Origin: Austropuccinia psidii
Lineage: Eukaryota; Basidiomycota; Pucciniomycetes; Pucciniales; Sphaerophragmiaceae
Direction of reading: 5' to 3'
NCBI GenBank assembly: GCA_023105745.1
Contig: JALGQZ010000004.1
Location: forward strand, 38,020,437-38,084,436
Length of the DNA stretch: 64,000 nt
Part shown: positions 8,492-62,080 of the stretch, one piece after another
Numbering within the stretch: position 1 is the stretch's first letter
Layout: each line of letters opens with the position of its first letter
Program-made: the position numbers and the translations under genes
The notes under the pieces: model-generated
Databases searched by the model: none
The model's input: only the letters and a program-made list of their open reading frames with translations
What the model was told of the DNA's origin: nothing

Positions 8492-10266
8492 ACTCATCAT
8501 TCATCATTTTTCAAGAAGAAGAGCTTTATTGCCTTCTTTTTGGGATACAACAAAAGGCAAAGCAATGAAATAAAAGCTTTCTTAATGAAGTCATAGGAAT
8601 ATCATAATCTCAAAGCTTGCATGTATTTACTCAAGGAAAAGGGCAAGGATAATTTAATGAAAGATGACAAGGCAGAAGAAAAGAGGTATTTTCAGGAGAA
8701 GGAGAGAGGGAAAGAAAATTAAAAGCAAAAAGTGTAAAAATAATGGGGGATATTGAGATGCCACTCAACAGTGGCAGTGTCAGCCTGTGACTCAAAGCCA
8801 GAGCACAAGCATGACATCCAAAATACCATAAACCAATGGTATAGCCAAGATACCACCAAAACATGGAGCTGAGCCAAATCAGCTCAAAAGATATCAAACG
8901 AAAGAGGAAACTCACCCCTTGAAGGATATACAAGTCCCATCATCATAGGACAAAGAATAACAAAGTTATCCATGCTCAAAGTTATTGCTGAGCATAAACC
9001 TTAATTTTAACCTCTCATCTGAAATACAGAGTAAGAGGTTTAACCCCATCAAATGGGTATGGAAAATGAATTTCCAAGTCAGGGAAATCCAATGGTACCA
9101 GCCAAACTGAGCTAGCACCAGTATTATAGAAGTTTTGGTCAAATTCAGGCAAAATAAGAGTGAACAAAACATTCACCTCTCATCTAACTTCTACAGTTTT
9201 AGTGTGAGATACTTGTGGTGGGGTCTTTTTGGAGAGAGAAAAATTAGGGCTATCTGATGGTGTCATCCATTTCCCCATATCTCAACTACAGCAGAAGTTA
9301 TAGGGCAAACAAGCTCAATACAGATTTTTGCCTAAAACACGCATATGTACAAAAATCTTGTACATGGCATAACTTTGCCATATTTAATGATAACCATATC
9401 AAATAAGGGACCATTGTGTAGAAATCATACAGGGCTACACACTGGTTCAGTTTTGAGGTTGATATCTCAAGAACTGACAAAACTAAAGCTGTTTTAAGGT
9501 CAAAATCTCACATTCTGACCAATACAGCCTTACCATGGGATAATATCCCTTAATCATGAATATGAGGTGTCAAATAGACAAAGAAGCTTGTTTTTACTTC
9601 AATATCTCATATTTCAGGCAATACTGGGGTCCCGTACAGCTTCTGTACAGCATTCTATGGGTCATACACGTCAGAATCAGGCTGTGAGGTCCCCAGATGG
9701 AAATTTTCACCTGTTATTGGTGAAAACTGCCCAGATGTGTTTTCAAAACCACGTCTGAGACCAATACAGGTTGTACAGGCTGTTTGAAAACCACAAGCTA
9801 TTACTAGAGAGTGAAAAATCTTCACTTCCTCTATGTAGAAAGGTCTAGCACCCTTTCCACCCCATTTCAGGATAAAAAGGAGGCTTTTCACAGCCAGAAT
9901 TGTCTCCTCATCCTGCTCTTGAATAACCTATGTAGTAAACTGTCAAAAACAGTTTTACTCTTGGTTAATAATCAGGTATAATTAAAAATCTTAATTATTT
10001 TAGTCTCTTATTATTGTAACCCAACAGATAAAGCTGCACCCAGGGCTTTCAACAGTGCTCACCACCACTATATTATATATAGTAAAGCCCTTTTAATCTT
10101 AAATCCAATCATCTTCAGCTCTTATAAATCTTTTTTGAACCATTTTCACCGTGTCACAAACATAGTTAAAGTTGTAACTAGCCTATTTACACCTTTATCA
10201 TAGTTTCATCCAGACAGGCAGGGTATTATGGCATTCAGGAGCCCACCAGTTTCAAGAGGGGAATAT
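8492..10266 (+). mobile_element. Remnant 3' internal end of an LTR-B element (+), interrupted by LTR-A
   Basis: The stretches 8492-8777 and 10222-10266 match the reverse complement of the last internal bases of CV1 (52439 to about 52640): a purine-rich run, GGGGATATTGAGATGCCACTC, then GTATTATGGCATTCAGGAGCCC and the polypurine tract AAGAGGGGAATAT. The part upstream of about 8492 was replaced by G1. No coding sequence survives, so only the 3' untranslated end and the LTR of this older relative of CV1 remain. Confidence 0.8.
8778..10216 (+). mobile_element. Solo LTR-A
   Basis: A 1,439 bp LTR runs from TGTCAGCCTGTGACTC to TTTCATCCAGACA and is flanked by the 5 bp duplication GGCAG (8773-8777 and 10217-10221). 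It is the clearest family member and serves here as the reference for LTR-A ends. It sits inside the tail of an older LTR-B element. No gene is present. Confidence 0.94.
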
Positions 10267-11030
10267 TGTAACAACCACTATTCAGGGGTAATGAAATTCA
10301 ATATTAAACCCACTGAAACACCCCAAACAAGAAAACTAATTGTGTGTATCAGTTGTGAGTCTCGGAAATCTTCCTTTATTAAACATGCATACACGTTGGC
10401 TCCTCAATAAAGACTGTCAACTCCTGTACTGGTTGCATTTCCCCAATACAGTTTTGGATTCACAAGTATGTATCTTTATGATTACTTAATACCACCCCAC
10501 CTCCTTTACAGATCCTGTAGAGCCTTACAGGACCTGTATTATTCAAACTCAATTCAATAATCAATTCCTCACACGAAAATTTGCTGTCTGGATCAGGGCT
10601 GGTGATTCTCACATATAACAGCCCCTCTTTCTCCCCTCTGGGGACTTTTCCCAGTTAATGCATTTAGTTGATTTCTTATTTTATGGATATGCTTACCCTT
10701 ATTTTTGAGTATTAAATTTATTGGTATTAATTTAGTCTTTGCATTTTTTCTTTTCCTGTACAGTATGAGTTTTGGTGGCCATATCCTTATTAACCCTTCT
10801 CTTTCCTTCTGACAGGTTGAAAAAAGGGCCTTGGACTTTTTTGTGGCTGGCTCTTTTATTTCTTACTCTTATTTTTTGTTTCTTCTTTTTCTTATATTTA
10901 ATTTAAAAGAAATTATACTCTTATCACACTCTTAAGTGTACCCTGAATTATTCTATTTTTGAGCCCTCCATAAGTAAGTCCCAGTTTAATGGGTTCTGAG
11001 CCCTCTTCACTTAGAAGACCTTCTGTGACA
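10267..11030 (+). repeat. LTR-B copy, diverged, plus orientation
   Basis: It starts TGTAACAACCACTATTCAGG and ends AGACCTTCTGTGACA, matching the reverse complement of the CV1 LTRs end to end at a similar length (764 against 762 bp). Divergence from CV1 is far greater than between the two CV1 LTRs. A polypurine tract (10252-10265) precedes it, so it is a 3' LTR; the rest of its element is lost. Confidence 0.88.
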
Positions 11031-21649: not shown

Positions 21650-23480
21650 TGTGTGGGTGCGGGTTCGGGTGCAGGTGCTTGTGCAGTGTTGTGTGCGGGT
21701 GGGGGTGCTTGTGCAGTGTTGTGTGTGGGTGCAGGTGCTTGTGCAGTGTCATGTGCGGGTGCGGGTGCTTGTGCAGTGTCGTGAGTGGGTGTGGGTGCTT
21801 GTGCAGTGTCATGTGCGGGTGCAGGTGCTTGTGCAGTGTCGTGTGCGGGTGCAGGTGCTTTTGCAGTGTCATGTGCGGGTGCTGGTGCTTGTGCAGTGTC
21901 GTGTGCGGGTGTGGGTGCTTGTGCAGTGTCGTGTGTGGGTGCAGGTGCAGGTGCTTGTGCAGTGTCGTGTGCGGGTGCAGGTGCTTGTGCAGTGTCATGT
22001 GTGGGTGCGGGTGCTTGTGCAGTGTCGTGTGCGGGTGTGGGTGCTTGTGCAGTGTCGTGTGCGGGTGCAGGTGCTTGTGCAGTGTTGTGTGCGGGTGCAG
22101 GTGCTTGTGTAGTGTCATGTGCGGGTGCAGGTGCTTTTGCAGTGTCGTGTGCGGGTGTGGGTGCTTGTGCAGTGTCGTGTGCGGGTGTTGGTGCTTGTGC
22201 AGTGTCGTGTGCGGGTGCAGGTGCTTGTGCAGTGTCGTGTGCGGGTGCAGGTGCTTGTGCAGTGTCATGTGCATGTGCTGTGTGTGGGTGTGGGTGCTTG
22301 TGAAGTTTCGTGTGCGGGTGCAGGTGCTTGTGCAGTGTCATGTGCGGGTGCGGGTGCTTGTGCAGTGTCGTGTGCGGGTGTGGGTGCTTGTGCAGTGTCG
22401 TGTGCGGGTGCAGGTGCTTGTGCAGTGTTGTGTGCGGGTGTGGGTGCTTGTGCAGTGTCGTGTGCGGGTGTTGGTGCTTGTGCAGTGTCGTGTGCAGGTG
22501 CAGGTGCCTCTGCAGTGTTGTGTGCGGGTGCAGGTGCTTGTGCAGTGTCATGTGCGGGTGCGGGTGCTTATGCAGTGTCGTGTGCATGTGCGGGTGCGGG
22601 TGCAGGTGCTTGTGCAGTGTTGTGTGCGGGTGTGGGTGCTTGTGCAGTTTCGTGTGCGGGTGCAGGTGCTTGTGCAGTGTCATGTGCAGGTGCGGGTGCT
22701 TGTGCAGTGTCGTGTGCGGGTGTGGGTGCTTGTGCAGTGTTGTGTGCGGGTGTGGGTGCTTGTGTAGTGTCGTGTGCGGGTGTTGGTGCTTGTGCAGTGT
22801 CGTGTGCGGGTACAGGTGCTTGTGCAGTGTCATGTGCATGTGCGGGTGCTTGTGCAGTGTCATGTGCGGGTGCAGGTGCTTGTGCAGTGTTGTGTGCGGG
22901 TGTGGGTGCTTGTGCAGTGTCGTGTGCGGGTGCAGGTGCTTGTGCAGTGTCGTGTGCATGTGCGGGTGCTTGCGCAGTGTCGTGTGCGAGTGCAGGTGCT
23001 TGTGCAGTGTCGTGTGCGGGTGTGGGTGCGGGTGCAGGTGCTTGTGCAGTGTCATGTGCGGGTGCTTGTGCAGTGTTGTGTGCGGGTGTGGGTGCTTGTG
23101 CAGTGTTGTGTGCGGGTGCAGGTGCTTGTGCAGTGTCGTCTGCGGGTGTGGGTGCTTGTGCAGTGTCAAGTGTGGGTGCAGGTGCTTGTGCAGTGTCGTG
23201 TGCATGTGCGGGTGCTTGTGCAGTGTCGTGTGCGGGTGTGGGTGCTTGTGCGGTGTTGTGTGAGGGTGTGGGTGCTTGTGCAGTGTCGAGTGCGGGTGCA
23301 GATGCTTGTGCAGTGTTGTGTGCATGCGCGGGTGCTTGTGCAGCATCGTGTGTGGGTGCAGGTGCTTGTGAAGTGTCGTTTGCGGGTGCGGGTGCTTGTG
23401 CAGTTTCATGTGTGGGTTAAGGTGCTTGTGAAGTGTCAAGTGTGGGTGCAGGTGCTTGTGAAGTGTCAAGGATGGGTGAT
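21650..23480. repeat. 30 bp minisatellite, about 60 units
   Basis: The unit is close to GTGCTTGTGCAGTGTCGTGT plus a ten-base variable part (GCGGGTGCAG or GCGGGTGTGG). Units differ mostly at three or four positions, with a few irregular lengths such as near 22275 and 23030. Because 30 is a multiple of three and the unit lacks stops, long frames stay open on both strands (10-residue repeats such as TLHKHPHPHT on the minus strand). I regard these as by-products of the repeat, not genes. Confidence 0.92.
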
Positions 23481-23689
23481 TGTGGAGGGGCAGTGGCAGG
23501 TGTGGAAGCATATCTTGGCTGCTGGAAGAGATGATTAGTAGATGGTGCAGAAGCCAATTCATGTGTGAGAGTAGGCATGGTAAAGGGGTTAGATTATCAG
23601 GCAGGAGGGGAGGATTCAGACAAATGACAAATATGAGGATGCCAAATTGCTTCCTTGCACATCAAGATGTAATTACCCAAAAATGGTGA

Positions 23690-29600: not shown

Positions 29601-29736
29601 GGCAGGATAAGAATGGTAAGCAGCAGGGGTGCGGAAGTGTAAGGAGTGGTGAGGGCAGAGATGGGGGGCGGTACAGGAGCGTAAGGATCATAAGCGGCAT
29701 TGAGGATTAAGCCAGTGTGAGGGCAGTGTTGGAGGC

Positions 29737-30080
29737 ATGTCGGGAGGGCTCTCCACAAGCATAAGGTTTGTAAGTGGTGTTGGAGGCATGTTGGGAGGGC
29801 TCTCCACAAGCGTAAAGATTGTAAGTGGTGTCGTAGGCATGTTGGGAGGTCTCTCCACAAGCGTAAGGATCATAAGTGGTGTCGGAGGCATGTTGGGAGG
29901 GATCTCCACAAGCGTAAGGATTGTAAGTGGTGTCGGAGGCATGTTGGGAGGGCTCTCCACAAGCGTACGGATCATAAGTGGTGTTGGAGGCATGTTGGGA
30001 GGGCTTACCACAAGCGTAAGGATCGTAAGTGGTGTCGGAGGCATGTTGGGAGGGCAGTACACAAGCATAAAGATGGTAAG
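29737..30080. repeat. 51 bp minisatellite, about 6.5 units
   Basis: Direct units of 51 bp read on the + strand as 17-residue repeats of the form MLGGLSTSVRIVSGVGG. Units differ by a few substitutions. More degenerate relatives lie at 29590-29736 and up to 30190. They form the right subterminal region of the CACTA-like element. I do not treat the open frames as genes. Confidence 0.85.
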
Positions 30081-30385
30081 GGTGGGTGTGTGAAAGCGTA
30101 ACAAGTGGTGAGGGCGGAGATGGGAAGGCAGTGTTGGAGTCTCATCTGGAGGGTGGTGCGGGCGCATAAGCATGCAAAGCATCAGGGATGCGGAAGCCAA
30201 TGAGGTGAAATTACCCGAACATTGTGAATAGTGTTGGAATGGGCTTGGGCTTTGAGTGACATTCTCATGTGACACATGTGACGATTGACGTTGTCTTGAC
30301 GCTGACGTGACGTGACCCACTAAATCCAGTGACTATAAAGTGACACTAATGGGACTGAAGCAAGATTTTATACTGACAGCAGTAC

Positions 30386-33599: not shown

Positions 33600-35011
33600 T
33601 CCTTAGTAAGTAACTTGCATGAAATGCTACACTTCTTATCCTGAGCATAACTGTTTCTTTCCTAGTCAAAGAAAGCTGTGTGCAGTTCTGTAACACTGAT
33701 TCCTTTTATGGGGATTTGTGGGGAAGCTTCTTCTGGCACATAAGCAGGATTATCAATATTATTTTTTAGTGGCCATCTGCTCAGTCCATTGCCATTTTTA
33801 TGGATATTTCCATCTTTGTGAACAAAAGTGTCACAGGGGCTCTTCAAAGTGAAGAGGGCCTGGCACTCAGTAAACTGGGACTCACTTTTGGAGGGCTCAA
33901 GGATATGGGAAGATTAAAGACACTTAAGAGTGTAAGGAATGAATTACTATAATAAAGATATGAGAAAAGCAGCAACAAAGAAATAAGAATAAGAAATAGA
34001 AGAGCCAACCACAAACAAGTCCAAGTCCACTGTTTCAACCTGTCAGAATGGAAAGAGAAGGGTTAATAAGGATATGGCCACCCAACTCATACTGTACAGG
34101 CAAAGAAAGAAATGCAAAGACTAACTTAGAATTAAATAATTATAATACCCAAAAAAAAGGATAAGAATAATTATAAAATAATAAATAAAGTGAATTCATT
34201 AACTGGGGAAAATTCCCCAGGGGGGAGAAAGAGGGGCTGGTATATGTGAGAATCACCAGCCCTGATCCAGAGGAAGAATTTTCATGAGAATAATTGATGA
34301 TTGAATTGAGTCTGGCCAATACAGGTCCTTTGCAGCTGTACAGAGCCTGTACAAGAGGTGTGATGTATTTGAGTGATCATACAGCTTCATACTGGTGTAT
34401 TGAAACTGTATTGGGTGAATCCAACCTGTACAGGTATTGACAGGCTGTATTGACGTACCAAACTGTATACATGTTTCAGAATGAAGATTGCTAAAACTGA
34501 ATGCTTATGCAGATACTGGATTTGCTGATTTGAGGTGTTTGAGAGGGTATATGAATGAATACCCTTACCCCTGATGGATGGTTGTTACAAAAAGTCATAT
34601 TTCCCCTATACTCCTGTATGGCTATTTGCCATTTGAGCATATTTCTGTTAGGTGTCTTCATGTTTAAAAGTGACTTAACAGTGGTACAATCTTTTATCAC
34701 TTCAAAATCACATCCTTCCAGGAAGAAATTCAATTTTCCAAGGCCCAGACAAGGCATAAACACTCCATCTGACTTGCTCTATATCTGGCTTCAGTTGGTT
34801 TGATTTTCCCTGTTATGAAACATATAGGTCCTTCCACAGGTTTATCATTTATAATATGGACTTGATGAAGTGCAGCACCCATCCCATCCCCTGATGCATC
34901 AATATATATTTTAAAAGTCAGCTTAAGTTCTTGCATCAGTAAGAGCGGAGCAGTGGTCAAGGCTTTGCCTCTGTCAACAGTCATTTCAAATATGGTGTTT
35001 TTGTCACACAA
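33600..35011 (-). pseudogene. pol: RNase H region of G3 pol, split by a solo LTR-B
   Basis: The minus frame 34730-35011 reads [37 protein letters not shown] and [25 protein letters not shown], and 34491-34763 continues [22 protein letters not shown] and IQEYRGNMT. The first two acidic ligands (YIDAS, MECL) are present; the third position is KDC. After the LTR insertion the domain resumes at 33662-33828 with HKDGNIHKNGNGLSRWP, where the last ligand Asp of a D-G-L-S motif is Asn. The pieces join exactly across the solo LTR. Confidence 0.85.
33829..34589 (-). mobile_element. Solo LTR-B in G3 RNase H
   Basis: A 761 bp LTR starts (reverse orientation) TGTCACAGGGGCTCTTC and ends ATGGATGGTTGTTACA, flanked by AAAAG on both sides (33824-33828 and 34590-34594). 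It is nearly the same as the two LTRs of CV1, so a CV1 relative inserted here and was removed by LTR recombination. Confidence 0.94.
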
Positions 35012-50813: not shown

Positions 50814-51676
50814 TTTTGAGGTTAATCCTATGATAAAGTGATTATAAAGGTATTTACAATTTTAAATCTGACTGTGACATGAATAATATTGATAAAAAGT
50901 GATTCAATAATAATATTCAGGGCTTTAATATTGACCAATAGTCGTGGTGAGCACTGTTGAAAGCCCTAGTTGTAGATGTATGAAATTGGCTTACTATAAT
51001 AAATGCTAAAATAGCTAATATAATGGTTATACCTGATTGTTCACCAAGGGTCTAGCTGTTGGTAAATGGTGGTACTATGTAAGAATTAAAGAGAAGGATG
51101 GTAAATGTTTCTTGGAAAGGGAAAGGTCCCTTTTATGCCTGAAAATATGTCAAAAGGTCCTCCAGACCATTTCATACAGAGGAAGTGAAGGTTTTCAACT
51201 TCCAAAAACTAGATTTTGGTTTTCACCAAGCCTGTATAGCCTTTGTTGGGTTAATATTTGGTCTTGAATCCACATCTGGGTATTTTTCACCAATACAGGG
51301 TGAAAATATTCATCTGTGGACCACACAGCCCTCTCCTAACATGTATGATGTGTAGAATGCTGTACAGAACCAGTATGAGACCCAAGTATTTCAAAATCTA
51401 TGAGATATTGGAGGATAAACATGCACCTTTGTCTAATTTACACCTCATATTCAAGAATATGGCAAGGTATCCCACAGTAAAGGTGTATTGGACCAACTGT
51501 GGGATTTTAACCTTAATACTGCAATAGATTCTTCAATTTTCATTTTATTGAGCTCAAACTTGGTTCACTGTGTAGCCCTGGATTGGGCTTACACAACAGT
51601 ACCTCATTTGATATAGGTAGTATTCAATATGGCAAAGCTGTACAAGGTTTAATTATGCGTATCCAAATATGGATTT
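50814..51676 (-). repeat. 5' LTR of G4, left part (LTR-A type)
   Basis: The LTR starts near 50814 beside the primer site and is interrupted at 51676 by CV1. The last five bases, GATTT (51672-51676), are duplicated at 62076-62080. The remainder is at 62081-62635. Confidence 0.85.
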
Positions 51677-52438
51677 TGTCACAGGGGCTCTTCAAAGTGA
51701 AGAGGGCCTGGCACTCAGTAAACTGGGACTCACTTATGGAGGGCTCAAGGATATGGAAATATGAAAGACACTTAAGAGTGTAAGGAATGAATTACTATAA
51801 ATAAAGATATGAGAAAGCAACAACAAAGAAATAAGGATAAGAAATAGAAGAGCCAACCACAAACAAGTCCAAGTCCACTGTTTCAACCTGTCAGAATGGA
51901 AAGAGAAGGGTTAATAAGGATATGGCCACCCAACTCATACTGTACAGGCAAAGAAGGAAAATGCAAAGACTAACTTAAAATTAAGTAATTATAATACCCA
52001 AAAATAAGGATAAGAATAATTATAAAATAATAAATAAACTCAATTAATTAACTGGGGAAAAGTGCCCAGGGGGGAGAAAGAGGGGCTGGTATATGTGAGA
52101 ATCACCAGCCCTGATCCAGAGGAAGAATTTTCATGAGAATAAATGATGATTGAATTGATTCTGGCCAATACAGGTCTTGTACAGCTGTGCAGAGCCTCTA
52201 CAAGAGGTGTGGTGTATTTGAGTGATCATACAGTTTCATACTGGTGTATTGAAACTGTATTGGGTGAATCCAACCTGTACAGGTATTGACAGGCTGTATT
52301 AATGTACCAAGCTGTATGCATGTTTCAGAATGAAGATTGCTGAAACTGAATGCTGATGCAGATACTGGATTTGCTGATTTGGGGTGTTTGAGTGGGTGTA
52401 TGAATGAATACCCTTACCCCTGATGGATGGTTGTTACA
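51677..52438 (-). repeat. 3' LTR of CV1
   Basis: It starts TGTCACAGGGGCTCTTC and ends GGATGGTTGTTACA (762 bp). About positions 52171-52204 contain clustered GTACAG dyads, better preserved in the other LTR. Confidence 0.95.
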
Positions 52439-52456
52439 GTATCCCCCTCTTGAAAC
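52439..52456 (-). other. Polypurine tract of CV1
   Basis: On the minus strand TTTCAAGAGGGGGATAC lies immediately before the LTR. The same tract precedes the older LTR-B at 10252-10266. Confidence 0.85.
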
Positions 52457-53381
52457 TGGTGGGCTCCTGAACACCATAATACCCTGCCACTGTTGAGTGG
52501 CATCTCAATATCCCCACTTTTTTTCAAAAAAAATTTCTTTTTTAATTTTCTTTTACTCTTGGCCATTATCCTGAAAATCTTTCTTCACTCCTTCTCTGTC
52601 AAACTCAATTGATTCCCCCCCTTTTTTTTCCAAGTTTGAGTAAGTATTCCACTTCAGAATATGCATTTCTTTTCTACTGAATCAATCAACCATGCCCTTG
52701 GAGTGTGGCCTTGGGATATATCCCAGAATAAGGGCCACTGAGCTCTTGTGCTCAAAAAATGATGCCCAATGAGTATATGAAGTGTACTCATTGGGCAAGG
52801 CTTAATCCAATGAATTCTTGAAAAATATTCCTCCAGGAGTCTTGTCCCCATTGTCCATGGAAATGGCCTCAAACAGCCCTCCAAAGTGCTCTGGGCTGTG
52901 GCCTCTCCCCTGAGGAAATCTTGATACCTCTTGATTTTTATGGCCTTTTGGGCCTTTTGGGTGTTTTGGTGAAGTTGGGTAATTCTTTGATTTTTGGCCA
53001 TATTTGGCCTTTTTGCTTGTTTGGGGCCCTACGGTCCGCGGTCCGTGGTCTATGGTCTATGGTCTGCGGTCCGTGCACCGTGCGCTGCGGTCCGCGGTCC
53101 GTGGGGGTTATTGGAGGCCCCCAGGAGCAAAATGGAGCCCCTGGACCCAGGGTGACCAAGGGGCCCAGAAATGGCCCAAATATCACTTTCACCATACATG
53201 GCCTGGACCCATTGATGGGGTCCAGGACCATCAAGATCCTGGCCTCCCCAAAGTTGCAGGGGAGGCCCTGGGTGATGAGTTCAGCCCCAAAGGGGTATGA
53301 ACCTTCACCTTAGAGGCTTTGAGGGGGGGCATAATTGAGTTATGGCCCCCATTTCCTCGAGGTCGAATTCTTTTTCTTGAT
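52457..53381. other. CV1 3' internal region, upstream of the reverse-strand gene
   Basis: Non-coding in the sense direction. It contains C/T-rich and T-rich tracts (52500-52640) and, at about 53029-53107, a GC-rich tract of repeated GGTCCGCGGTCCGTGG-like units. For the gene on the + strand this is the upstream, presumably promoter and 5' UTR, region. Overlapping open frames at 52921-53313 follow the repeats and are not supported as genes. Confidence 0.6.
53029..53107. repeat. GC-rich short repeat tract (CCGCGGTCCGTGG units)
   Basis: Repeated CGGTCCGCGGTCCGTG and GGTCTATGGTCTATGG units form a strongly GC- and CpG-rich island in otherwise AT-rich DNA, about 275 bp upstream of the first ATG of the reverse-strand gene. 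Confidence 0.75.
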
Positions 53382-54618
53382 ATGGAGTGGATTGATTCTG
53401 ACGTCTTGAATCTTCTGCTTGCATATTCTTCAGTTATGAGTTCTAAACTGACTGAGCTCACTGAATCTTCTCCTTCTGTACCGCCACTGTCTGTTATTCA
53501 TGGTTCTGGGGTCTTCAGTCAACTGTCCTCCCCTTCCATGGCGTCTTCTGGCCATTTTGACCCCTCCCAAACCTATGATGGGTTCAGAGCAGTTGAAGTT
53601 CTTGATCCTGCCTGTACTGAATGTTTGGCCAGGGGTAAGGAATGCTTTCAACATTACAATCCTCAATTGTCAAAATGCCACTTTTGCTTTGTTGGGAAGA
53701 AGCCATGTTGTCGTACGGGATCAACTTTGTCCCAGGTCAGGAGACACTTATGGAGCAGGAAAGATGGGCCTTATGGGCAGGAATTCCCCATTCTTCAGGA
53801 ACCTACCCTGATGCAACTTCTGGATTTTCTCAATGTGAGTGATTTGCATATTTTGATTGAATTGGTTCTGATATTTTGATTTAGTGACTGGTTCCAGGCA
53901 GAGGGATGTGGCCAGGTGGACTAATGGTGGAGGGTCCATTCCAATTGGTGGTAGGCCCATACACTATAGCTCAGAAATCCCAATCTCAAGGACCAATGCT
54001 GATGGAGTGGTGAAAGTAGTGAAGAAACTAAGAAGAATTGTTGATTCCCCAACAGATCCAGATGCTGAAGGAAGTGATGAGTTGTATGGTGAAGAAGTTC
54101 AAGTTATTCCTCATTCAATTGGCCATCCATCTAGCAATTCCTCTTCTCAACCTCTTGCCAACACTAGGTTCCAAAGTCAAGTTATTCCCAGCACTCCACG
54201 AACCTTCCAACCAATGCTTGCTTCCATTCCTACAACCCTTCCTCCTCCTTCACCAACTACTTCCCACACCACCAGGCCTGCCTTGAATCCAGCAGTAAGA
54301 CCATCACCAGTTCAACAGTCCAGAAACTCACCCATAAACACCTCCCGTCAACTCCAACCTGTGGCCAGCTCCAGCAGAAGAAGAGATGGATTGTCCCCTT
54401 TTCCGTTTCCTGCCGCTCAAGTTTTTCAAAGAAGAGAACGTTGGCCTATCCGGGTTACCAGAGAAGATCCCAACGTGGCTAGTGAAAGTCAAGATGCTGT
54501 GGCCAGATTGTTCAGGAGGGTTGATAGAAATAGCAGAGAGGTGATTATGTATGCCAATGACAGGACTATTCCAGGTACTGCTTCTGAAGAGATGGCTGCA
54601 AAATTTGCCTGGTATTAA
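53382..54618 (+). pseudogene. Reverse-strand gene in CV1: Zn(II)2Cys6-cluster-like protein, spliced, two lesions
   Basis: The gene lies on the strand opposite gag-pol. Exon 1 (53382-53834) and exon 2 (53885-54618) are separated by a 50 base GT-AG intron. Six Cys codons (53613, 53622, 53643, 53676, 53685, 53706) give C-x2-C-x6-C-x10-C-x2-C-x6-C, which fits the fungal Zn(II)2Cys6 binuclear cluster, a nuclear DNA-binding domain. Exon 2 has an acidic segment, a Ser/Pro/Thr-rich linker and a basic C-terminal part (FQRRERWPIRVTRED, DAVARLFRRVDRNSREV). A one-base loss near 53800 changes frame before the intron, and a TAA at 54616 cuts off a longer reading (DELINDFQRTFDDLGRDN follows). ATGs at 53382 and 53436 are both possible starts. 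I recall similar proteins annotated as hypothetical in Austropuccinia psidii. DNA binding is inferred from cysteine spacing only. Confidence 0.75.
53835..53884 (+). other. Spliceosomal intron of the reverse-strand gene
   Basis: It begins GTGAGT, ends TTTAG and has a branch-like CTGAT at 53868-53872. Splicing joins CAA T to TG ACT and keeps the exon 2 frame open. The 50 base size is usual for basidiomycete introns. Confidence 0.75.
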
Positions 54619-55443
54619 GATGAGTTAATAAATGATTTCCAGAGAACTTTTGATGATTTGGGTAGAGATAACCAGTTTTCCTTTTCCTTGTTTGTGTTTG
54701 GTTTGGCTTCTATCCCCACTCTTATAATACTAAAAAATGAAAAAATAATGGAACCTCCCAATACATGATTTGGGATGGGATGCTGCTGCTTTAAAGAAAT
54801 AAAAGAAAGAAAAATATACAAGTAAATAAAGAAAGAAAAAATTAAAGAATAAGAGAAAATGAGAGTAAAGAAAGAAATAAAGAAAAATCCTGATGGTTAG
54901 TCCTTCCTGTGGTGAGTTGCTTGATTCTGGCCAACAAGTGTCTGAAAAATGAAAACCAAGCATTTGATGCTCACAGAGTGGCCAAGGTAATGTTTTACAA
55001 GAAGTAGAACCCTCATGGATGCATACCAGGAGATGGAACTTACTTTCATAACTTCCACTCCCCACCAAGCACCATAAAATCAAAAAGAATTGCCATAAAT
55101 GACTTCTGAGATGAATTGCCATAAATGACTTCTGAAAAGAATTGCCGTAAATGACTTGAAGTAATGAATGTCTTGAATTATGATGATTGGCATAAATGAA
55201 ATGATAAATAATAGAGAAAGAAAGAAAATTAAAGAAAGAAACATTTGGCCATATCTTGATAAGGTCCAAATCGGAGGGTATTGGTGTTGTAGGCTTCCTG
55301 AACCTGTCCAAAAAATTGACAAGTGCTCACAAAGTGGCCAAGGTGATGCTTACAACAGCATATGGGTAGAATACCCCCTTAAAGGTGCATGCCAGGAAAG
55401 GAACTTACTTTCATAACTTCTTCTCCCCACCAAGCACCATAAA
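54619..55443. other. CV1 spacer between reverse-strand gene and pol, with local duplications
   Basis: It contains purine-rich runs (54795-54890, 55200-55245), a 26 bp unit repeated three times (GAATTGCCATAAATGACTTC..., about 55089-55165), and two diverged copies of a roughly 130 bp segment (about 54970-55080 and 55330-55447). The second copy overlaps the end of pol. This looks like local duplication around the two converging genes, perhaps of their 3' ends. No further gene is seen. Confidence 0.6.
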
Positions 55444-57540
55444 TCAAACTCTTGAGGTATTTGGACCAGGCTTGTCTGGATACAATGAATGGAAATCCTT
55501 GACAAGATCTGGTGAGTTGCTAAGGTTTGAAGCTGGTTCCCAAGTGGTTCTTTCTGGGTCTTCACTGAATCCTTTCCACTCTACAAGATACCATAATTTA
55601 CCTCTTTTGAGTTTTGAGTCCAGAACCTGAGCCACTTCCCATTCTTCTTGCTCCTCCACTAAAACTGGCGGTGGCGGCAATTGATGATGATTTGGGATAG
55701 TTGAATGCTTGACTGGTTCTAATAAGGACACATGGAATTCAGGGTGAACTGTCTTCCATTGCTGAGGCAACTTGAGGTGATATGCATGACTGCCAATCTT
55801 CTTCAGAACTTCAAAAGGTCCCAACCATCTTTCTGATAACTTCTTGGTGGGTCTTGTTGTCTTGATGTTCTTTGAAGCCAGCCATACTTTGTCCCCAGGT
55901 TGGAAATCAGGTGGGATTGCTCTATTTCTATCTGCATACTTCTTGAATCTCCTTATTGCTGACTCTGATTCTTCTTTGACAACTTGCTGTACTGATTGGA
56001 GTTTTGTTGATAACTTTCCAGCAGGTGAGTCTTGAGAAATATGGATTGAGTCAAAGCTGGGATTTCTTCCATAAATGGTGAAAAAAGGTGATTGCTTGGT
56101 TGATGAATGTTCTGCCTTATTATAGGCAAATTCAGCCAGAGGGAGCCAGGTGTACCAGTCATCTTGATGATAGCTGACATACATCCAAAGGTACTGTTCT
56201 AGTATCTGATTTACCCTCTCTGTCTGTCCATCTGTTTCAGGGTGAAAGGAAGTTGAAAGATCTCTTGATATCTTGAGCTGCTGACACAATTGAGTCCAAA
56301 ATGATGAAACAAATAAGGATCCTCTATCACTGACAATACTGACTGGAAGTCCATGCTTGGAAAATACATGACTAATGAAGATTTGAGCTGAGTCCAGAGC
56401 AGTGATTGTTCCATAAGCTGGAATGAAGATTGCCATTTTTGGGAATCTGTCCACAACTACTAAAATTGAATCAAAGTTGTTTGACAGTGGCAATTGATTG
56501 ATGAAGTCCATTGATAATGAATTCCAAGGACCAGAGGGAATTGAAAGAGGGTTGAGTAATCCAAACTTCTTGTGATGAATGTTCTTGTTTCTTGAACATT
56601 GCTGACATGAGGACACATCGTCCTTGATGAATTGATTCATGCCAGCCCAATAAAAATCCCTCTTGATGAGCTTGAGGGTCTTCTCCTGGCCAGGATGGCC
56701 AGCCAATGGTGAGTCATGACGCTTTTGAAGAATATTGAGTTGAAGTTCTTCATTGCTTGGGATTACCACTCTATCTTTGAATAATATTAACTTGGCTTGA
56801 GGTTCAAGAGAATAATCTGGAACTGATTCACCTCTTGCTAGTTGCTTGAGTATTTCTTTATAGTCTTTGTCTTGCCATACTTCTTTTTGAATCTTGTCTA
56901 CTACATCTGAGAAAATCTCCACTTTGATTGAGAGGAATCTTGACTCTTGAATTCCATCTTGCTTAAGTACTGGATGAAAATTTTGAGGATTCTTGCTGAT
57001 GAAGTCCACCCCCCTCTCTGGGTACACGTTGTCCCGACGTGACAAGGCTTCTGGTAAAGTGGCCAGCCTGCCTGGGCGGTAAGTGATAGTGAAGTGAAAT
57101 TCTGAGAGAAATTCAGCCCAATGGGCCTGACGACAGGTAAGAACTTTGGAAGACATGAAATACTGCAAGGAAGAGTGGTCTGTCAAGACCTCAAAAGAAT
57201 TGGAAAGAGAAAGAAGAAATGCTCTCCAGCGCTTGAGAGCCCAAACTATGCCAAGGAGTTCCTTGTCATGAATTTCATAGTTGAGTTCAGCTGGTAAGAG
57301 CTTGTGGCTATCAAATGCAATGGGATGCTTTCCTGAGTCATTCACCTGACTCACCACAGTGCCCAATGCATAATCAGAAGCATCAGTCTCTACAATAGTA
57401 GGTAGAGATGGATTGAAATGGGACAAGATAGGAGCAGAGGTGAAAGCTTCTTTGAGTGCTTGAAACTGACTAAGAGCTTCCTCATTGAAGATAAAGGGAG
57501 AATCTTTTTTGAGAAGGGAATTGAGAGAAGTGATTTTTCG
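55444..57540 (-). pseudogene. pol: CV1 pol, C-terminal part: RNase H, integrase, chromodomain
   Basis: This open minus frame gives RNase H (VETDASDYALG, EIHDKELLGIV, VLTDHSSLQYF; the last ligand of the ADALSR-type motif is Glu in LPEALSRRD). The integrase has its HHCC zinc finger (HDSPLAGHPGQEKTL, CQQC) and a complete D-D-E triad (SMDFINQLP, SDRGSLF, GQTERVNQILEQYL). A chromodomain ends it (WEVAQVLDSKL, LWYLVEWKGF, TTWEPASNL), which in chromoviruses directs integration to histone-marked chromatin. It is separated from RT by a one-base deletion near 57542, so the polyprotein would stop early. Otherwise it is well preserved. Confidence 0.93.
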
Positions 57541-59144
57541 TAATAATTTTTAATGAAACGACAATAAAAATTGGCAAAGCCAAGAAAAGATTGAAGGGCC
57601 TTGATGTTTTTGGGCTGAGGCCAATTGAGTATTTGCTGAACTTTTGAAGAATCCATCTTGAGGCCATTACTTGAAACAACATAGCCCAAGTATTCCACAC
57701 TTGAGGCATGGAATACACACTTGGAGGCTTTGGCAAATAAATTATTTTCTCTGAGTCTTTGGAGGACAGAGGTCACATGTTTGACATGTTCTTCCTCAGA
57801 ACTTGAGAATACCATAATATCATCTAGATAAACCACAACAAACACATCCAAGAAATCTGCAAATATATCATTTACAAGATTCTGGAAAGAAGCAGGAGCA
57901 TTGGTCAAACCAAATGGCATGACCAAATACTCATAACTACCATACTTGGTTCTGAAGGCAGTTAAGTGCTCATCCCCCTCTTTGATTCTCAGAAGGCTAT
58001 ATGCACCATGCAAATCTATCTTGGAGAAGATAGTGGAACCGTTGAATACAGTAAGGAGCTGGTTCATAGGAGGGACAGGGTATCTGTTCTTCCTAGTGAC
58101 AGCATTGAGTTTGCAGTAGTCAACACACAAACAAAGACCACCATCCTTTTTCTTGACAAAAAGGACAGGTGCTCCTGTTGAAGAGGAGCTTGGTCTTATG
58201 AAACCTTTCTCTACATTCTCTGAAATGTAGGCCCGCAGTGTTTCTGACTCTTGATTTGATAATGAGTAGATAACACCAATTGGAGGTAGAAGACCCTCCA
58301 ATTCGATATGGTGATCACAGGCGTGGTGTGGAGGAGGTTTCTCTGCTTTCACCTTGGAGAATACATCCAAATATTGGTGATAAGCAGGAGGGACTACCTT
58401 CAACACAGTTTCAATTTCTTCTGGCTCTTCCTCCTCATCCCACTGCTCCTCCAGGAATGCATGAAAAGATAAGGGAGGAAGGTCCATATCCCCTTGAAAG
58501 AGATGAAGTGAAGATATGGCAATATCTTCTCCAACATCCTTTATCTCTTTGAAGACTTCATCTCTTAATGGAAGTAATGACTGAGAGGGAATGATGGAAG
58601 GGATATTGACAGAAGAAGGAAGGGAAGGTGTCTTAAGTTCACCAACCAGAGCAACACTGTTGACATCAGTGGCTAAGTCATTACTAGTTGAAGGAATAAT
58701 ACCACTAGAATCCTTATGACTAGAATCATAGGTGATCAATCCATTTTTCCAATCAATAATGGGATTAAAATGGTAAAGGAAATCATAGCCCAATATCAGG
58801 TCTTCTCCCTTGGGTGAATCTATGATAAAGAAGTCCCATTCAAAGCTTGGGAAGGAAGGCAGGTCAACTACCCACTTGGTATAATGGGTGATGAACAAGG
58901 CAGGGGATTCATTAGAATCCAAAATGAAAAGAGGAATCTTTTCAGGGAGCTCTGACAGAGTCAATGAGTACTTGAGAACAAAATTCTTTGCAATAAAAGA
59001 GTTTGTAGCACCAGAATCAATGAGAATACTATAGAAAATATCAGAGACAGAAGAGAAAATAAGAAATTTTAAAGATTTCTTGACATTAGTATTCAGAGTG
59101 CACAATTGTGCTCTTGAAGGAAACAAGTGAGAAACATTGAACAC
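57541..59144 (-). pseudogene. pol: CV1 pol, N-terminal part: protease and reverse transcriptase
   Basis: The minus frame begins just after the gag frameshift site and reads openly until the lesion near 57542. Protease: SILIDSGATNSFIAKNFV, a normal D-S-G-A active site. RT: VPPAYHQYLDVFSK, then the palm with KIDLHGAYSLLRI, FGLTNAPASFQ and an intact VVYLDDIMVFS catalytic box, and the thumb ending PKNIKALQSFLGFANFY. Conserved Arg in KKKDGGLxLCVDYxKLN and FYxRF are Cys, and in DLxGAY is His, all explained by CpG transitions. It has no start codon of its own in a good position and is probably made as Gag-Pol by -1 frameshifting. Confidence 0.93.
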
Positions 59145-59171
59145 ATCATGATTCCCACTCAGGCTTTTCCC
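59127..59171 (-). promoter_or_regulatory. Programmed -1 ribosomal frameshift signal between gag and pol of CV1
   Basis: In the gag frame the codons are CAG GGA AAA GCC TGA. The heptamer GGGAAAA (59165-59171) has the X-XXY-YYZ form in the right phase. After a 6 base spacer (GCCTGA) the arms GTGGGAA (59152-59158) and TTTCTCAC (59127-59134) can form a stem of 7 pairs. Pol is open in the -1 frame directly across the site. This fits a -1 frameshift that makes a small share of Gag-Pol. Confidence 0.75.
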
Positions 59172-60520
59172 TGCTTGCTAGGGAAGCCTCTTGATGATGA
59201 CCCAGGCTTGTTCTGAGGTCTCTTGAAGAATTTTTTAATTGGGTGCTTTCCACCACAATAAGTACACAACCCCTCTTTGATCCTCCTCTCCTTTTCAGAA
59301 CCGATTAATTTATTTTCCTTATTGAGGAGAGCGGCATGGGGCTTTTCCTTTGAAGATTGAAATTGCTTGCCCTTCCTGTTCTTCTTCTGGTGAAACCTCT
59401 TTGAAGATGAGTTTTGAGGAGGCCTAGATTGATTGGATCCAATGACTGGAGGCTTCTTCTCTTGATTTCCACCCTTTTCTTTTTGCCTCTCATGATATCT
59501 TGTGTCTAATTCTAAAGTGACATCTATAAGTTCTTGAAGAGTGTCAAAAGTTCCAGGGTGAGAAGCCAACTGATCCAATAATCTTGATGCCAATCCTCTT
59601 CTGTAAACATGGATATAAGCTCTTTCCCCCCAATCTCCAATTCTTGACATCAAGCTTCTGAAATCTGCAATGTACAAGGAAACATGACCACTCTCCTTCA
59701 TCCTGAAATTGTCCAACTCTTGTTCAGCTTTCCTGACTTCATTGGGGTCACCAAACAGAGTGAACAATTGAGATTCAAATAATGGCCAATTATTGAGGAG
59801 GTAGGAAGGGTCTTCATTGGAAATATTTGAGAGATAGGGTTCAATCCACTTTCCAGCTCTACCAGTGAGAAAAGAAGTTGAGTAAAGAACTTTATTCCTG
59901 TCAGAGAAGAAATTTTCTGGATCATTATGGAAGATTAATTGACAGAATTGGATAAATCCTCTCAATTTATGAGCTTGAGTACCATCAAAAGAATCAGGTG
60001 CATTCATGGATGGAGTCTTGAAAGCAGGGGCTTTAGAATTGTCCCTGGGAGCAACTGCTTGAGTGAGTTGCCCCATGAATTGAGTCATCTGCTCCATCAT
60101 CTTGAGGAGACTTGGATCAGTTTGAGAAACAAGAGGTTGACTAGAAAGGGATAGATTAGAACCCTGAGGTACCTCTGGAGCATTTGCCAAGGCATCTGCC
60201 ACTTCAGTTTCCCCAGAATCTTCCTCTTCCACAGACTCTTCCCCCTCTTCATCTTCAACTTCCCCTTTTCTTGCTCTTGCACCTTCAGACATGCCAGGGT
60301 AGCCACCCAAAAGTCCAGAGAAAGATCTTGATCTTCTAGATTTCATTCCACCTCTTCTTGAGGGTGCTGCTCCTTCCATCGGTGTTCCTCTGTCCAAGTT
60401 TGCACTCAGTTGATGAACTGATGGCGTGCGGTCAAGAGGAGCCCTTGCTGTAGGAGTGAGAACAGCTTGAATTCTTTGAGATCTAGTATTTTTGGCTGGG
60501 GGGCTATGCTGAACTGGCAT
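59159..60520 (-). CDS. gag: CV1 Gag (capsid/nucleocapsid polyprotein)
   Basis: A complete 453-codon frame from the ATG at 60520 to TGA at 59159. The N-terminal 75 residues are basic and Ser/Arg/Pro-rich (GGMKSRRSRSFSGLLGGY), followed by a very acidic stretch (EVEDEEGEESVEEED). Residues of about 180-350 are a typical retrotransposon capsid domain (SFDGTQAHKLRGFIQFCQLIF, GRAGKWIEPYLS, LFTLFGDPNEVRKAEQEL). A Lys/Arg-rich nucleocapsid part ends in CTYCGGKHPIKKFFK, a zinc knuckle whose last Cys is Phe. Gag would form particles and bind element RNA. The frame is open, but the damaged knuckle makes full function doubtful. Confidence 0.93.
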   Translation of the reverse strand: MPVQHSPPAKNTRSQRIQAVLTPTARAPLDRTPSVHQLSANLDRGTPMEGAAPSRRGGMKSRRSRSFSGLLGGYPGMSEGARARKGEVEDEEGEESVEEEDSGETEVADALANAPEVPQGSNLSLSSQPLVSQTDPSLLKMMEQMTQFMGQLTQAVAPRDNSKAPAFKTPSMNAPDSFDGTQAHKLRGFIQFCQLIFHNDPENFFSDRNKVLYSTSFLTGRAGKWIEPYLSNISNEDPSYLLNNWPLFESQLFTLFGDPNEVRKAEQELDNFRMKESGHVSLYIADFRSLMSRIGDWGERAYIHVYRRGLASRLLDQLASHPGTFDTLQELIDVTLELDTRYHERQKEKGGNQEKKPPVIGSNQSRPPQNSSSKRFHQKKNRKGKQFQSSKEKPHAALLNKENKLIGSEKERRIKEGLCTYCGGKHPIKKFFKRPQNKPGSSSRGFPSKQGKA

Positions 60521-61313
60521 TTTGAATAAAATGAAATAAACTTGATGGTATGAGAACAGAGATCAAAACTTGGCCAAATCAATCACAATAAAATCTTGAT
60601 GAATCTTGAGGAATCAATTCAAATCTTGAGGTGAAATCAAATTCAGTCAAAAGTCAAATCAATTCAACAATCAACAATCAATTCAAATCAAATATCAATA
60701 ATCTTGAGAAAGTCAACAATCAATCAATATTCAATCAATAATCAACCAATCAATAAATTAGTGTCTTTTATATGAAATCAAGGTCTTGAGGAATCAATCA
60801 ATCAATTTAAAGTCTTCAGAAATCAATTCAATATCTTGATGAGTCAAAATCAGTCAATAATCAAAATCAATTCTTGAGGATCAATAAAATATCTTGAGGA
60901 TTCAAAGTCAATCAATAATCAACATCAGCTCTTGAGGATCAATCAATATCTTGAGAAGTCAAAATTAATCAATCCAAATAAGAATCCTGAGCTGCTGAAT
61001 CAATAACCCAATGAATCCCAATGAAATAATCCAATCAATTAAACCAATAATCAATCCTGAATAAGACCTGAATAAGAACACAGAAAAAAATTGATTTGAT
61101 AAAATGAAATGAAGTGAATGAAATGGTCAGCAATGATTAAGAAAGAAGAAGAATCAATTTCATATGAATGAAATGAATGAGATGAAATTGATGAGAGAGA
61201 AAAATCATAATCATTAAGGATCATTAAGTCATAAAAAGGATCATAATTGATGAATGAGAGAAATGAATATGAATGAATGAATGAAAGAATCAAATATGAG
61301 TTAATTAATTTAA
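60521..61313 (-). other. CV1 leader with TCAATCAA low-complexity repeats
   Basis: On the + strand the sequence is dominated by irregular CAATCAATCAAT and CTTGAGGAATCAA repeats (about 60550-61060) and AATGAATGA repeats (61080-61290). The bases beside the LTR end (61290-61313) do not offer the TGG of a standard primer-binding site. No gene is supported. Confidence 0.7.
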
Positions 61314-62075
61314 TGTCACAGGGGCTCTTCGAAGTGAAGAGGGCCTGGCACTCAGTAAACTGGGACTCACTTATGGAGGGCTCAAGGATATGGAAAGATG
61401 AAGGACACTTAAGAGTGTAAGGAATGAATTACTATAAATAAAGATATAAGAAAGCAGCAACAAAGAAATAAGGATAAGAAATAGAAGAGCAAACCACAAA
61501 CAATTCCAAGTCCACTGTTTCAACCCGTCAGAATGGAAAGAGAAGGGTTAATAAGGATATGGCCACCCAACTCATACTGTACAGGCAAAGAAGGAAAATG
61601 CAAAGACTAACTTAAAATTAAATAATTATAATACCCAAAAATAAGGATAAGAATAATTATAAAATAATAAATAAACTAAATTAATTAACTGGTGAAAAGT
61701 CCCCAGGGGGGAGAAAGAGGGGCTGGTATATGTGAGAATCACCAGCCCTGATCCAGAGGAAGAATTTTCATGAGAATAAATGATTATTGAATTGAGTCTG
61801 GCCAATACAGGTCTTGTACAGCTGTACAGAGCCTGTACAAGAGGTGTGGTGTATTTGAGTGATCATACAGTTTCATACTGGTTTATTGAAACTGTATTGG
61901 GTGAATACAACCTGTACAGGTATTGACAGGCTGTATTAATGTACCAAGCTGTATGCATGTTTCAGAATGAAGATTGCTGAAACTGAATGTGGATGCAGAT
62001 ACTGGATTTGCTGATTTGGGGTGTTTGAGTGGGTGTATGAATGAATACCCTTACCCCTGATGGATGGTTGTTACA
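61314..62075 (-). repeat. 5' LTR of CV1
   Basis: 762 bp, TGTCACAGGGG to GGTTGTTACA, the same length as the 3' LTR. It should hold the promoter for gag-pol on the minus strand. The palindrome TGTACAGCTGTACA (61816-61829) and the flanking inverted pair CTTGTACAG/CTGTACAAG (about 61814-61842) are intact here. Confidence 0.95.
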
Positions 62076-62080
62076 GATTT

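What the first reader, a model, noticed from the sequence alone, without database searches (positions are those of the whole stretch)
53382..54618. Retrotransposon-borne reverse-strand gene with a Zn(II)2Cys6-like cluster
Seen: a 1.2 kb spliced reading frame on the strand opposite gag-pol, between the integrase and the 3' LTR, with cysteines spaced C-x2-C-x6-C-x10-C-x2-C-x6-C. Known: fungal GAL4-type DNA-binding domains follow C-x2-C-x6-C-x5-12-C-x2-C-x6-8-C. Inference: the chromovirus carries its own putative DNA-binding regulator, which could act on LTRs, on the host, or against silencing. Antisense genes in this position are known in some plant and fungal gypsy elements, but I know of none with this domain.
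Basis: partly seen in the sequence, partly recalled or inferred. Interest (0 to 1): 0.92.

Follow-up and report, generated by a model that had tools for sequence, protein, structure and literature searches.

The report
Antisense cysteine-cluster gene in rust retrotransposon
A large family of jumping elements in a rust fungus carries, on the strand opposite its own genes, a spliced extra gene that natural selection has kept, and just upstream of it an unusual array of seven-letter repeats that the encoded protein may recognise.

Summary
Host (inferred): Austropuccinia psidii. A Ty3/gypsy chromovirus on the minus strand carries a spliced plus-strand gene between chromodomain and 3' LTR, with cysteines spaced exactly as described.

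Corrections: the constrained ORF starts at 53436, not 53382 (18 upstream codons: dN/dS 0.95). The conserved intron is 53835-53884. The window copy is decayed: exon 1 leaves the relatives' frame near its end, and the ORF stops 19 codons before theirs.

The gene is real: dN/dS 0.31 between near and diverged copies; shifted frames give 0.90-1.31. In 27 of 30 diverged loci the antisense pol lies beside it.

The Zn2Cys6 label is unproven: spacing fits, but there is no Zn_clus hit, AlphaFold confidence is low, and cysteine constraint is mixed.

New here: a CGGTCCG heptamer array 335 bp upstream of the start, variable in unit number, recurring in diverged copies. It packs 11 of the element's 30 CGG/CCG triplets into 70 of 10,399 bases: a candidate target site.

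Verdict: new variant of known antisense accessory genes (plant Grande/Retand; Botrytis brtn).

The parts
61314..62075 (-). 5' LTR of the element (762 bp)
   Evidence: 97.4% identical to the 3' LTR; TSD GATTT at 62076-62080 and 51672-51676 (read)
59159..60562 (-). gag
   Evidence: Pfam Retrotrans_gag, Ty3_capsid
57390..59177 (-). protease - reverse transcriptase frame
   Evidence: Pfam RVP_2, RVT_1
55444..57549 (-). RNaseH - integrase - chromodomain frame (different frame from RT: the copy is decayed)
   Evidence: Pfam RT_RNaseH, Integrase_H2C2, SH3_Tf2-1, Chromo E=2.1e-11; rve 1.6e-06, below its cut-off
51677..52438 (-). 3' LTR
   Evidence: purine-rich tract adjoins it on the inside
53032..53101 (+). 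array of CGGTCCG-type heptamers, five exact; CpG observed/expected 1.17 for 53020-53110, in an otherwise CpG-poor element
   Evidence: expected 0.07 exact copies in the window, found 5; unit number varies between copies, flanks conserved
   Evidence: dN/dS 0.29 for exon 1; 18 codons before it 0.95. Near its end the window copy is out of frame with relatives
53613..53708 (+). six-cysteine cluster C-x2-C-x6-C-x10-C-x2-C-x6-C
53835..53884 (+). conserved intron (GTGAGT ... TAG)
53885..54618 (+). exon 2 to the window copy's stop; relatives read 19 codons further
   Evidence: dN/dS 0.32 for exon 2; C-terminal comparison

Best explanation
This is an accessory gene of a Ty3/gypsy chromovirus family of Austropuccinia psidii, lying antisense between the chromodomain and the 3' LTR. 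It makes a roughly 390-residue, mostly disordered protein with a six-cysteine cluster near the N-terminus and a constrained C-terminal helix pair. Shown: position and orientation, a conserved intron, purifying selection in both exons, presence with pol in diverged copies, and the heptamer array about 335 bp upstream. Inferred: it is transcribed from a promoter inside the region between its start and the 3' LTR; the intron survives retrotransposition because the genomic RNA is the opposite strand; the cysteines hold zinc; the protein is nuclear and binds the CGG/CCG heptamers upstream of its own gene. It would thereby set its own expression and keep the 3' end of the element open against silencing, giving a small self-contained regulatory circuit. 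The confidence below is for the whole mechanism; that the gene is a real, selected protein gene I put at about 0.95.
For: Selection: dN/dS 0.31 over 2,000 pairs between 40 near and 50 diverged copies (codon-bootstrap 0.25-0.39 on 150 of those pairs); exon 1 0.29, exon 2 0.32. In the distance bins of all 4,005 pairs the true frame gives 0.30-0.59 and the +1/+2 frames 0.90-1.31. N/S is 2.64 on terminal branches, 1.30 on internal ones and 0.94 on branches carrying 4 or more copies (terminal versus internal p=3.4e-17). Intron in frame in 38 of 40 and 34 of 50 copies. Pol antisense and 3' of the gene in 27 of 30 diverged loci tested (the other 20 of the 50 were fetched with too short a flank); 3' LTR beside it in 7 of 7 near loci and pol in 6 of 7. 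Array: 5 exact heptamers in the window against 0.07 expected; 48 of 61 located cores, of 90 copies, are 10+7n bp long (counted); CpG observed/expected 0.94 in near copies against 0.02-0.04 in LTR, flanks, intron and downstream, 0.28 and 0.15 in the exons; same site and flanks in diverged copies. Zn2Cys6 proteins typically bind pairs of CGG triplets (PMC5559640, passages). The most frequent residue is Cys at 6 of 6 positions in both groups, while 72 of 385 columns differ.
Against: No domain-level support for a zinc cluster. Cysteine constraint is absent in the codon-tree test (p=0.87). Gal4's CGG-contacting Lys18 (named in PMC5559640) has no counterpart by simple position: the window has Gly there (my reading of the sequence). 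The array can fall to one or two units and decays in copies, was not parsed in 29 of 90 copies, and folds strongly as plus-strand RNA, so it may act by structure instead. No transcript was seen. Shared branches carry stops (36 internal events, 15 on branches with 4 or more copies), so parsimony or tree errors, or non-autonomous lineages, are present. One reverse-strand frame also gives a low dN/dS, 0.41.
Confidence: 0.4

Rival explanations
1. The gene is real and selected, but the cysteine cluster is not a DNA-binding Zn2Cys6 module: it binds RNA or a protein partner and serves genomic-RNA export, particle formation or counter-silencing, roles that accessory proteins of other retroelements have or are proposed to have.
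For: No Zn_clus hit in 60 of 60 relatives; low model confidence; the most constrained stretch is the C-terminal helix pair (dN/dS 0.13-0.15 at residues 321-370 of P0005) rather than the cluster (0.22).
Against: The cysteine spacing fits the Zn2Cys6 pattern exactly, and the densest CGG/CCG stretch of the element lies just upstream of the gene.
Confidence: 0.35
2. The heptamer array is unrelated to the protein: a minisatellite or hairpin that expands by slippage or template switching and acts, if at all, as RNA or single-strand structure.
For: Units are near-palindromic; core length varies in 7-bp steps (48 of 61); the plus strand folds better than the minus strand in 29 of 31 cores of 40 nt or more (mean z -2.78 against -1.14; 9 of the 31 are diverged copies whose core length is not 10+7n and may be misparsed); window -4.60 against -1.37. 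Plant Retand elements also carry family-specific repeat arrays there, function unknown (PMC11963269 section 12).
Against: The array keeps CpG-rich CGG/CCG units in a genome where transposon CpG is lost (PMC8063080 passages) and sits at one fixed site in diverged copies.
Confidence: 0.35
3. A captured host gene carried as a passenger without function in the element.
For: Other LTR elements transduce host genes (PMC7264820 passages, PMC11963269 section 12).
Against: dN/dS 0.31 between copy groups; present with pol in 27 of 30 diverged loci; the 120 listed homologues (of 685; the rest not shown) and all 4 hits of the long-protein search are A. psidii proteins, and none listed is a known host gene family.
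Confidence: 0.05
4. A chance open frame with no product.
For: 76 of 90 copies have an in-frame stop in the aligned codons.
Against: Frame-specific constraint with shifted-frame controls near 1, reverse frames full of stops (medians 11, 16 and 17.5 per copy against 2 in the true frame), conserved splice sites.
Confidence: 0.02

Closest known systems
[quoted passage not shown]
   Same: Antisense, between pol and 3' LTR, kept in many copies, no clear similarity to other proteins; Retand also has tandem repeat arrays in the same region in about half of its elements and a domain predicted to bind DNA (PMC7264820 passages, PMC11963269 passages and section 12)
   Different: Host is a rust fungus; chromovirus rather than Retand; six-cysteine cluster rather than TRP28; CpG-rich heptamer array. 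No sequence comparison with the plant proteins was run.
brtn of Boty-like (BcGypsy1) elements, Botrytis cinerea
   Same: Fungal gypsy element with one extra antisense gene (title of Zhao et al. 2011 as cited in PMC7264820 and PMC8365987; the paper itself was not read)
Fungal Zn2Cys6 (Gal4-type) transcription factors
   Same: Cysteine spacing; CGG triplets near the gene
   Different: No Zn_clus match, no confident fold, predicted helix pair far from the cluster; encoded by a retrotransposon

Membership tests
Zn2Cys6 (PF00172) proteins | C-x2-C-x6-C-x5-12-C-x2-C-x6-8-C | tested here: met
   Window; Cys most frequent at all six positions in both copy groups. Complete in 28 of 120 annotated proteins, 30 of 40 near and 18 of 50 diverged genomic copies
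Zn2Cys6 (PF00172) proteins | Match to the Zn_clus profile | tested here: not met
   0 hits for the window protein at E<=10; 0 of 60 relatives
Zn2Cys6 (PF00172) proteins | Zinc cluster fold | tested here: inconclusive
   AlphaFold pLDDT 51 for the region, 46 for the whole protein; Foldseek best E 1.8, unrelated
Zn2Cys6 (PF00172) proteins | Coiled-coil dimerisation helix soon after the cluster | tested here: inconclusive
   Long predicted helices only at residues 325-353 and 360-384 of P0005, pLDDT about 53-76
Zn2Cys6 (PF00172) proteins | Zinc and CGG-DNA binding | not testable with these tools
   -
Antisense accessory ORF of LTR retrotransposons (aORF-3R) | Antisense between pol and 3' LTR | tested here: met
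Antisense accessory ORF of LTR retrotransposons (aORF-3R) | Under selection as a protein | tested here: met
   dN/dS 0.31 with frame controls
Antisense accessory ORF of LTR retrotransposons (aORF-3R) | Present in all or most copies of the element | tested here: inconclusive
   27 of 30 diverged loci have pol beside the gene, but loci were found through the gene, so the share of pol copies that carry it was not measured
Antisense accessory ORF of LTR retrotransposons (aORF-3R) | Own antisense transcript | not testable with these tools
   No RNA data; conserved splice sites are indirect support
Chromovirus (Ty3/gypsy with chromodomain) | RT-RNaseH-integrase order with C-terminal chromodomain | tested here: met

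The most novel reading that the evidence does not exclude
An LTR retrotransposon family of a rust fungus encodes on its antisense strand its own zinc-cluster DNA-binding protein together with the matching operator, a CGGTCCG array of variable unit number upstream of that gene: a complete regulator-plus-target circuit inside a retroelement.
Probability: 0.2. Interest if true: 0.8.

Novelty: new variant of a known kind. Interest (0 to 1): 0.55.

Why it matters
Antisense accessory genes of LTR elements are described mainly from plants and their role is unsettled (PMC7264820, passages). Here one is shown to be under frame-specific purifying selection through the history of a very large family (10,265 first-look candidates in a 1.02-Gb genome, of which 115 were scored), with a recurring candidate target site beside it. 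The genome was expanded mainly by Gypsy elements (PMC8063080, passages). If the protein controls the element or resists its silencing, it bears on how rust genomes became so large, and the question is open to direct test by strand-specific RNA, methylation and binding data.

Tried and rejected
Searches without result: Pfam (no significant hit), PDB by sequence, viral contigs, Foldseek on a low-confidence model (disregarded). Homologues in other rusts could not be looked for properly: one search found 685 proteins but shows only the best 120, all A. psidii. The long-protein search (4 hits at E<=10) gave A. psidii only, one of them a model that joins a Copia polyprotein to the C-terminal part of this gene.

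CpG retention in exons as proof of coding was dropped: 9 of 14 retained sites could be lost by one synonymous change. The shared-variant test within near copies goes in the expected direction but is not significant (N/S 2.60 for singletons, 1.48 for variants in 4 or more copies, p=0.07). In that call coding singletons of every class are about half as many as the non-coding rate predicts, so only the ratio was used (2.60 against 2.99 expected). The cysteine test is mixed. Rows dropped: 23 of 121 protein rows that lacked much of the cysteine region; 481 of 2,000 pairs in the start-codon test; 13 of 40 and 29 of 90 copies whose array flanks were not parsed. Paper searches: listings; three failed. 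The pattern search for heptamer arrays elsewhere in the genome did not complete, so it is unknown whether they occur outside this family.

Full report
What is there. The window lies in a 1,015,390,075-base assembly in 84 contigs. The 120 listed homologues of the gene (of 685 found) are Austropuccinia psidii proteins, so that host is inferred. On the minus strand a Ty3/gypsy chromovirus spans 51677-62075: LTRs of 762 bp, 97.4% identical, TSD GATTT on both sides and a purine tract next to the 3' LTR, gag, PR-RT, RNaseH-integrase-chromodomain. RT and RNaseH lie in different frames, so this copy is decayed.

The antisense gene. On the plus strand between chromodomain and 3' LTR there is a frame of two exons. 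Ninety copies were compared codon by codon: a near group of 40 (the window and 39 others at 90-97% identity to it) and 50 more diverged ones. dN/dS between the two groups is 0.31 (exon 1 0.29, exon 2 0.32; 95% 0.25-0.39 by codon bootstrap on 150 of 2,000 pairs). In all 4,005 pairs, binned by distance, the true frame gives 0.30-0.59 and the two shifted frames 0.90-1.31. Of the three reverse frames one gives 0.41 and the others 1.07 and 1.30; all three are full of stops, and I read the 0.41 as the shadow of shared codon positions, which is inference. N/S falls from 2.64 on terminal to 1.30 on internal branches and 0.94 on branches with 4 or more copies; among near copies singletons give 2.60, somewhat below the 2.99 expected from the non-coding spectrum. 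So copies drift nearly freely after insertion, while the lineages that spread kept the protein. The closest pairs still show 0.46-0.54, less than free drift alone would give. Only 14 of 90 copies lack an in-frame stop in the aligned codons.

Gene model. The constrained ORF starts at the ATG at 53436: the 18 codons before it show dN/dS 0.95 and stops in 31 of 89 copies. The conserved intron is 53835-53884, in frame in 38 of 40 near (50 nt) and 34 of 50 diverged copies (51 nt). An intron on this strand is not removed from the genomic RNA, which is the opposite strand; that is why it can persist (inference).

Part of the element. In 7 of 7 near loci with wider flanks the 3' LTR is beside the gene and in 6 of 7 the pol end as well. 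In 27 of 30 diverged loci the integrase-chromodomain frame lies antisense and 3' of the gene; the other 20 diverged loci had too short a flank to tell.

The protein. About 388 residues, mostly without confident structure (mean pLDDT 46), with a C-terminal helix pair (residues 325-353 and 360-384 of P0005), in the most constrained stretch (dN/dS 0.13-0.15 at 321-370). The cluster region has dN/dS 0.22 but no confident fold (pLDDT 51), no Pfam hit for the window protein and only chance-level ones among 60 relatives, no PDB relative and no meaningful structural neighbour. Cysteines: the most frequent residue at 6 of 6 positions in both groups, while 72 of 385 columns differ between them; 10 internal against 85 terminal changes in the protein tree, versus 758 against 2,725 elsewhere (p=0.007; p=0.06 for branches with 4 or more copies, tree of 98 of 121 rows); but 10 against 49 versus 454 against 2,014 in the codon tree (p=0.87), where 4 of the 10 are one loss and three regains at one position. 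The most frequent change is Cys to Phe.

The heptamer array. At 53032-53101, 335 bp upstream of the start, five exact CGGTCCG units stand where 0.07 are expected in the whole window. The array holds 11 of the 30 CGG/CCG triplets counted in the element, ten of them paired as CGG-T-CCG; the other 19 are scattered over 10.3 kb, and the two LTRs have no CGG and one CCG. Near copies differ by whole units (12 lengths among the 27 of 40 parsed, 25 of 27 in one 7-bp register; 48 of 61 located cores of 90 copies are 10+7n bp), between conserved flanks. The same site with the same flanks, with one to more than ten units, is seen in diverged copies; 19 of 50 diverged copies have a core of 10+7n, 9 an odd one, 22 none that could be parsed. 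CpG observed/expected in near copies is 0.94 in the array against 0.02-0.04 in LTR, flanks, intron and downstream, with 0.28 and 0.15 in the exons, in a genome whose transposons are known to lose CpG (PMC8063080, passages read). Zn2Cys6 proteins typically bind paired CGG triplets (PMC5559640, passages), so the array is a natural candidate site; that the protein binds it is inference. A rival is structure: the plus strand folds better than the minus strand in 29 of 31 longer cores.

Compared with what is known. [quoted passage not shown] PMC11963269 passages and section 12), and in Botrytis (brtn, cited in PMC8365987, passages; original not read). In the main texts of the two papers opened on A. 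psidii and rust transposons the word 'antisense' does not occur (PMC8063080 and PMC12210899), and no title or abstract start listed by searches or 51 (at most 20 rows each) names such a gene in a rust element; three further searches failed. I therefore file it as a new variant of a known kind. It is not filed as a member of the Zn2Cys6 family, because the profile test was not met.

Noticed in passing
L009-L047, exons and flanks: Singleton changes in near copies are rich in C:G to A:T transversions: in non-coding flanks C>A and G>T are nearly as common per site as C>T and G>A (0.33 and 0.32 against 0.37 and 0.35). In the annotated proteins this fits many Cys>Phe, Asp>Tyr and Ser>Tyr changes.
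   Followed up: partly
G000 contig C2, about 52.68-53.38 Mb: Five copies of the gene with the same number and type of stops lie about 174-176 kb apart, which looks like a tandem segmental duplication or an assembly artefact.
   Followed up: no
61274-61313: No obvious tRNA primer-binding site next to the 5' LTR; the stretch is AT-rich (by eye).
   Followed up: no
53103-53122: A short GGGGG...CCCCC inverted repeat directly follows the array and is kept, sometimes one pair longer, in many of the diverged copies printed.
   Followed up: partly
array units in located copies: Decayed CpG in array units favours TG over CA (188 to 64) more than in exons of near copies (93 to 69); this may reflect structure, strand-biased damage or amplified unit variants, and units are not independent.
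   Followed up: partly
33829-34589 and 10217-11030: Further LTR copies of the same or a related family in the window, 95% and 79% identical.
   Followed up: no
21660-23505 and 29726-30084: Two tandem-repeat arrays with strong GC skew in the window.
   Followed up: no
P0121 (O181_043849), residues 1209-1342: A Copia polyprotein model runs into the C-terminal third of this gene, probably a nested insertion read as one gene model.
   Followed up: partly
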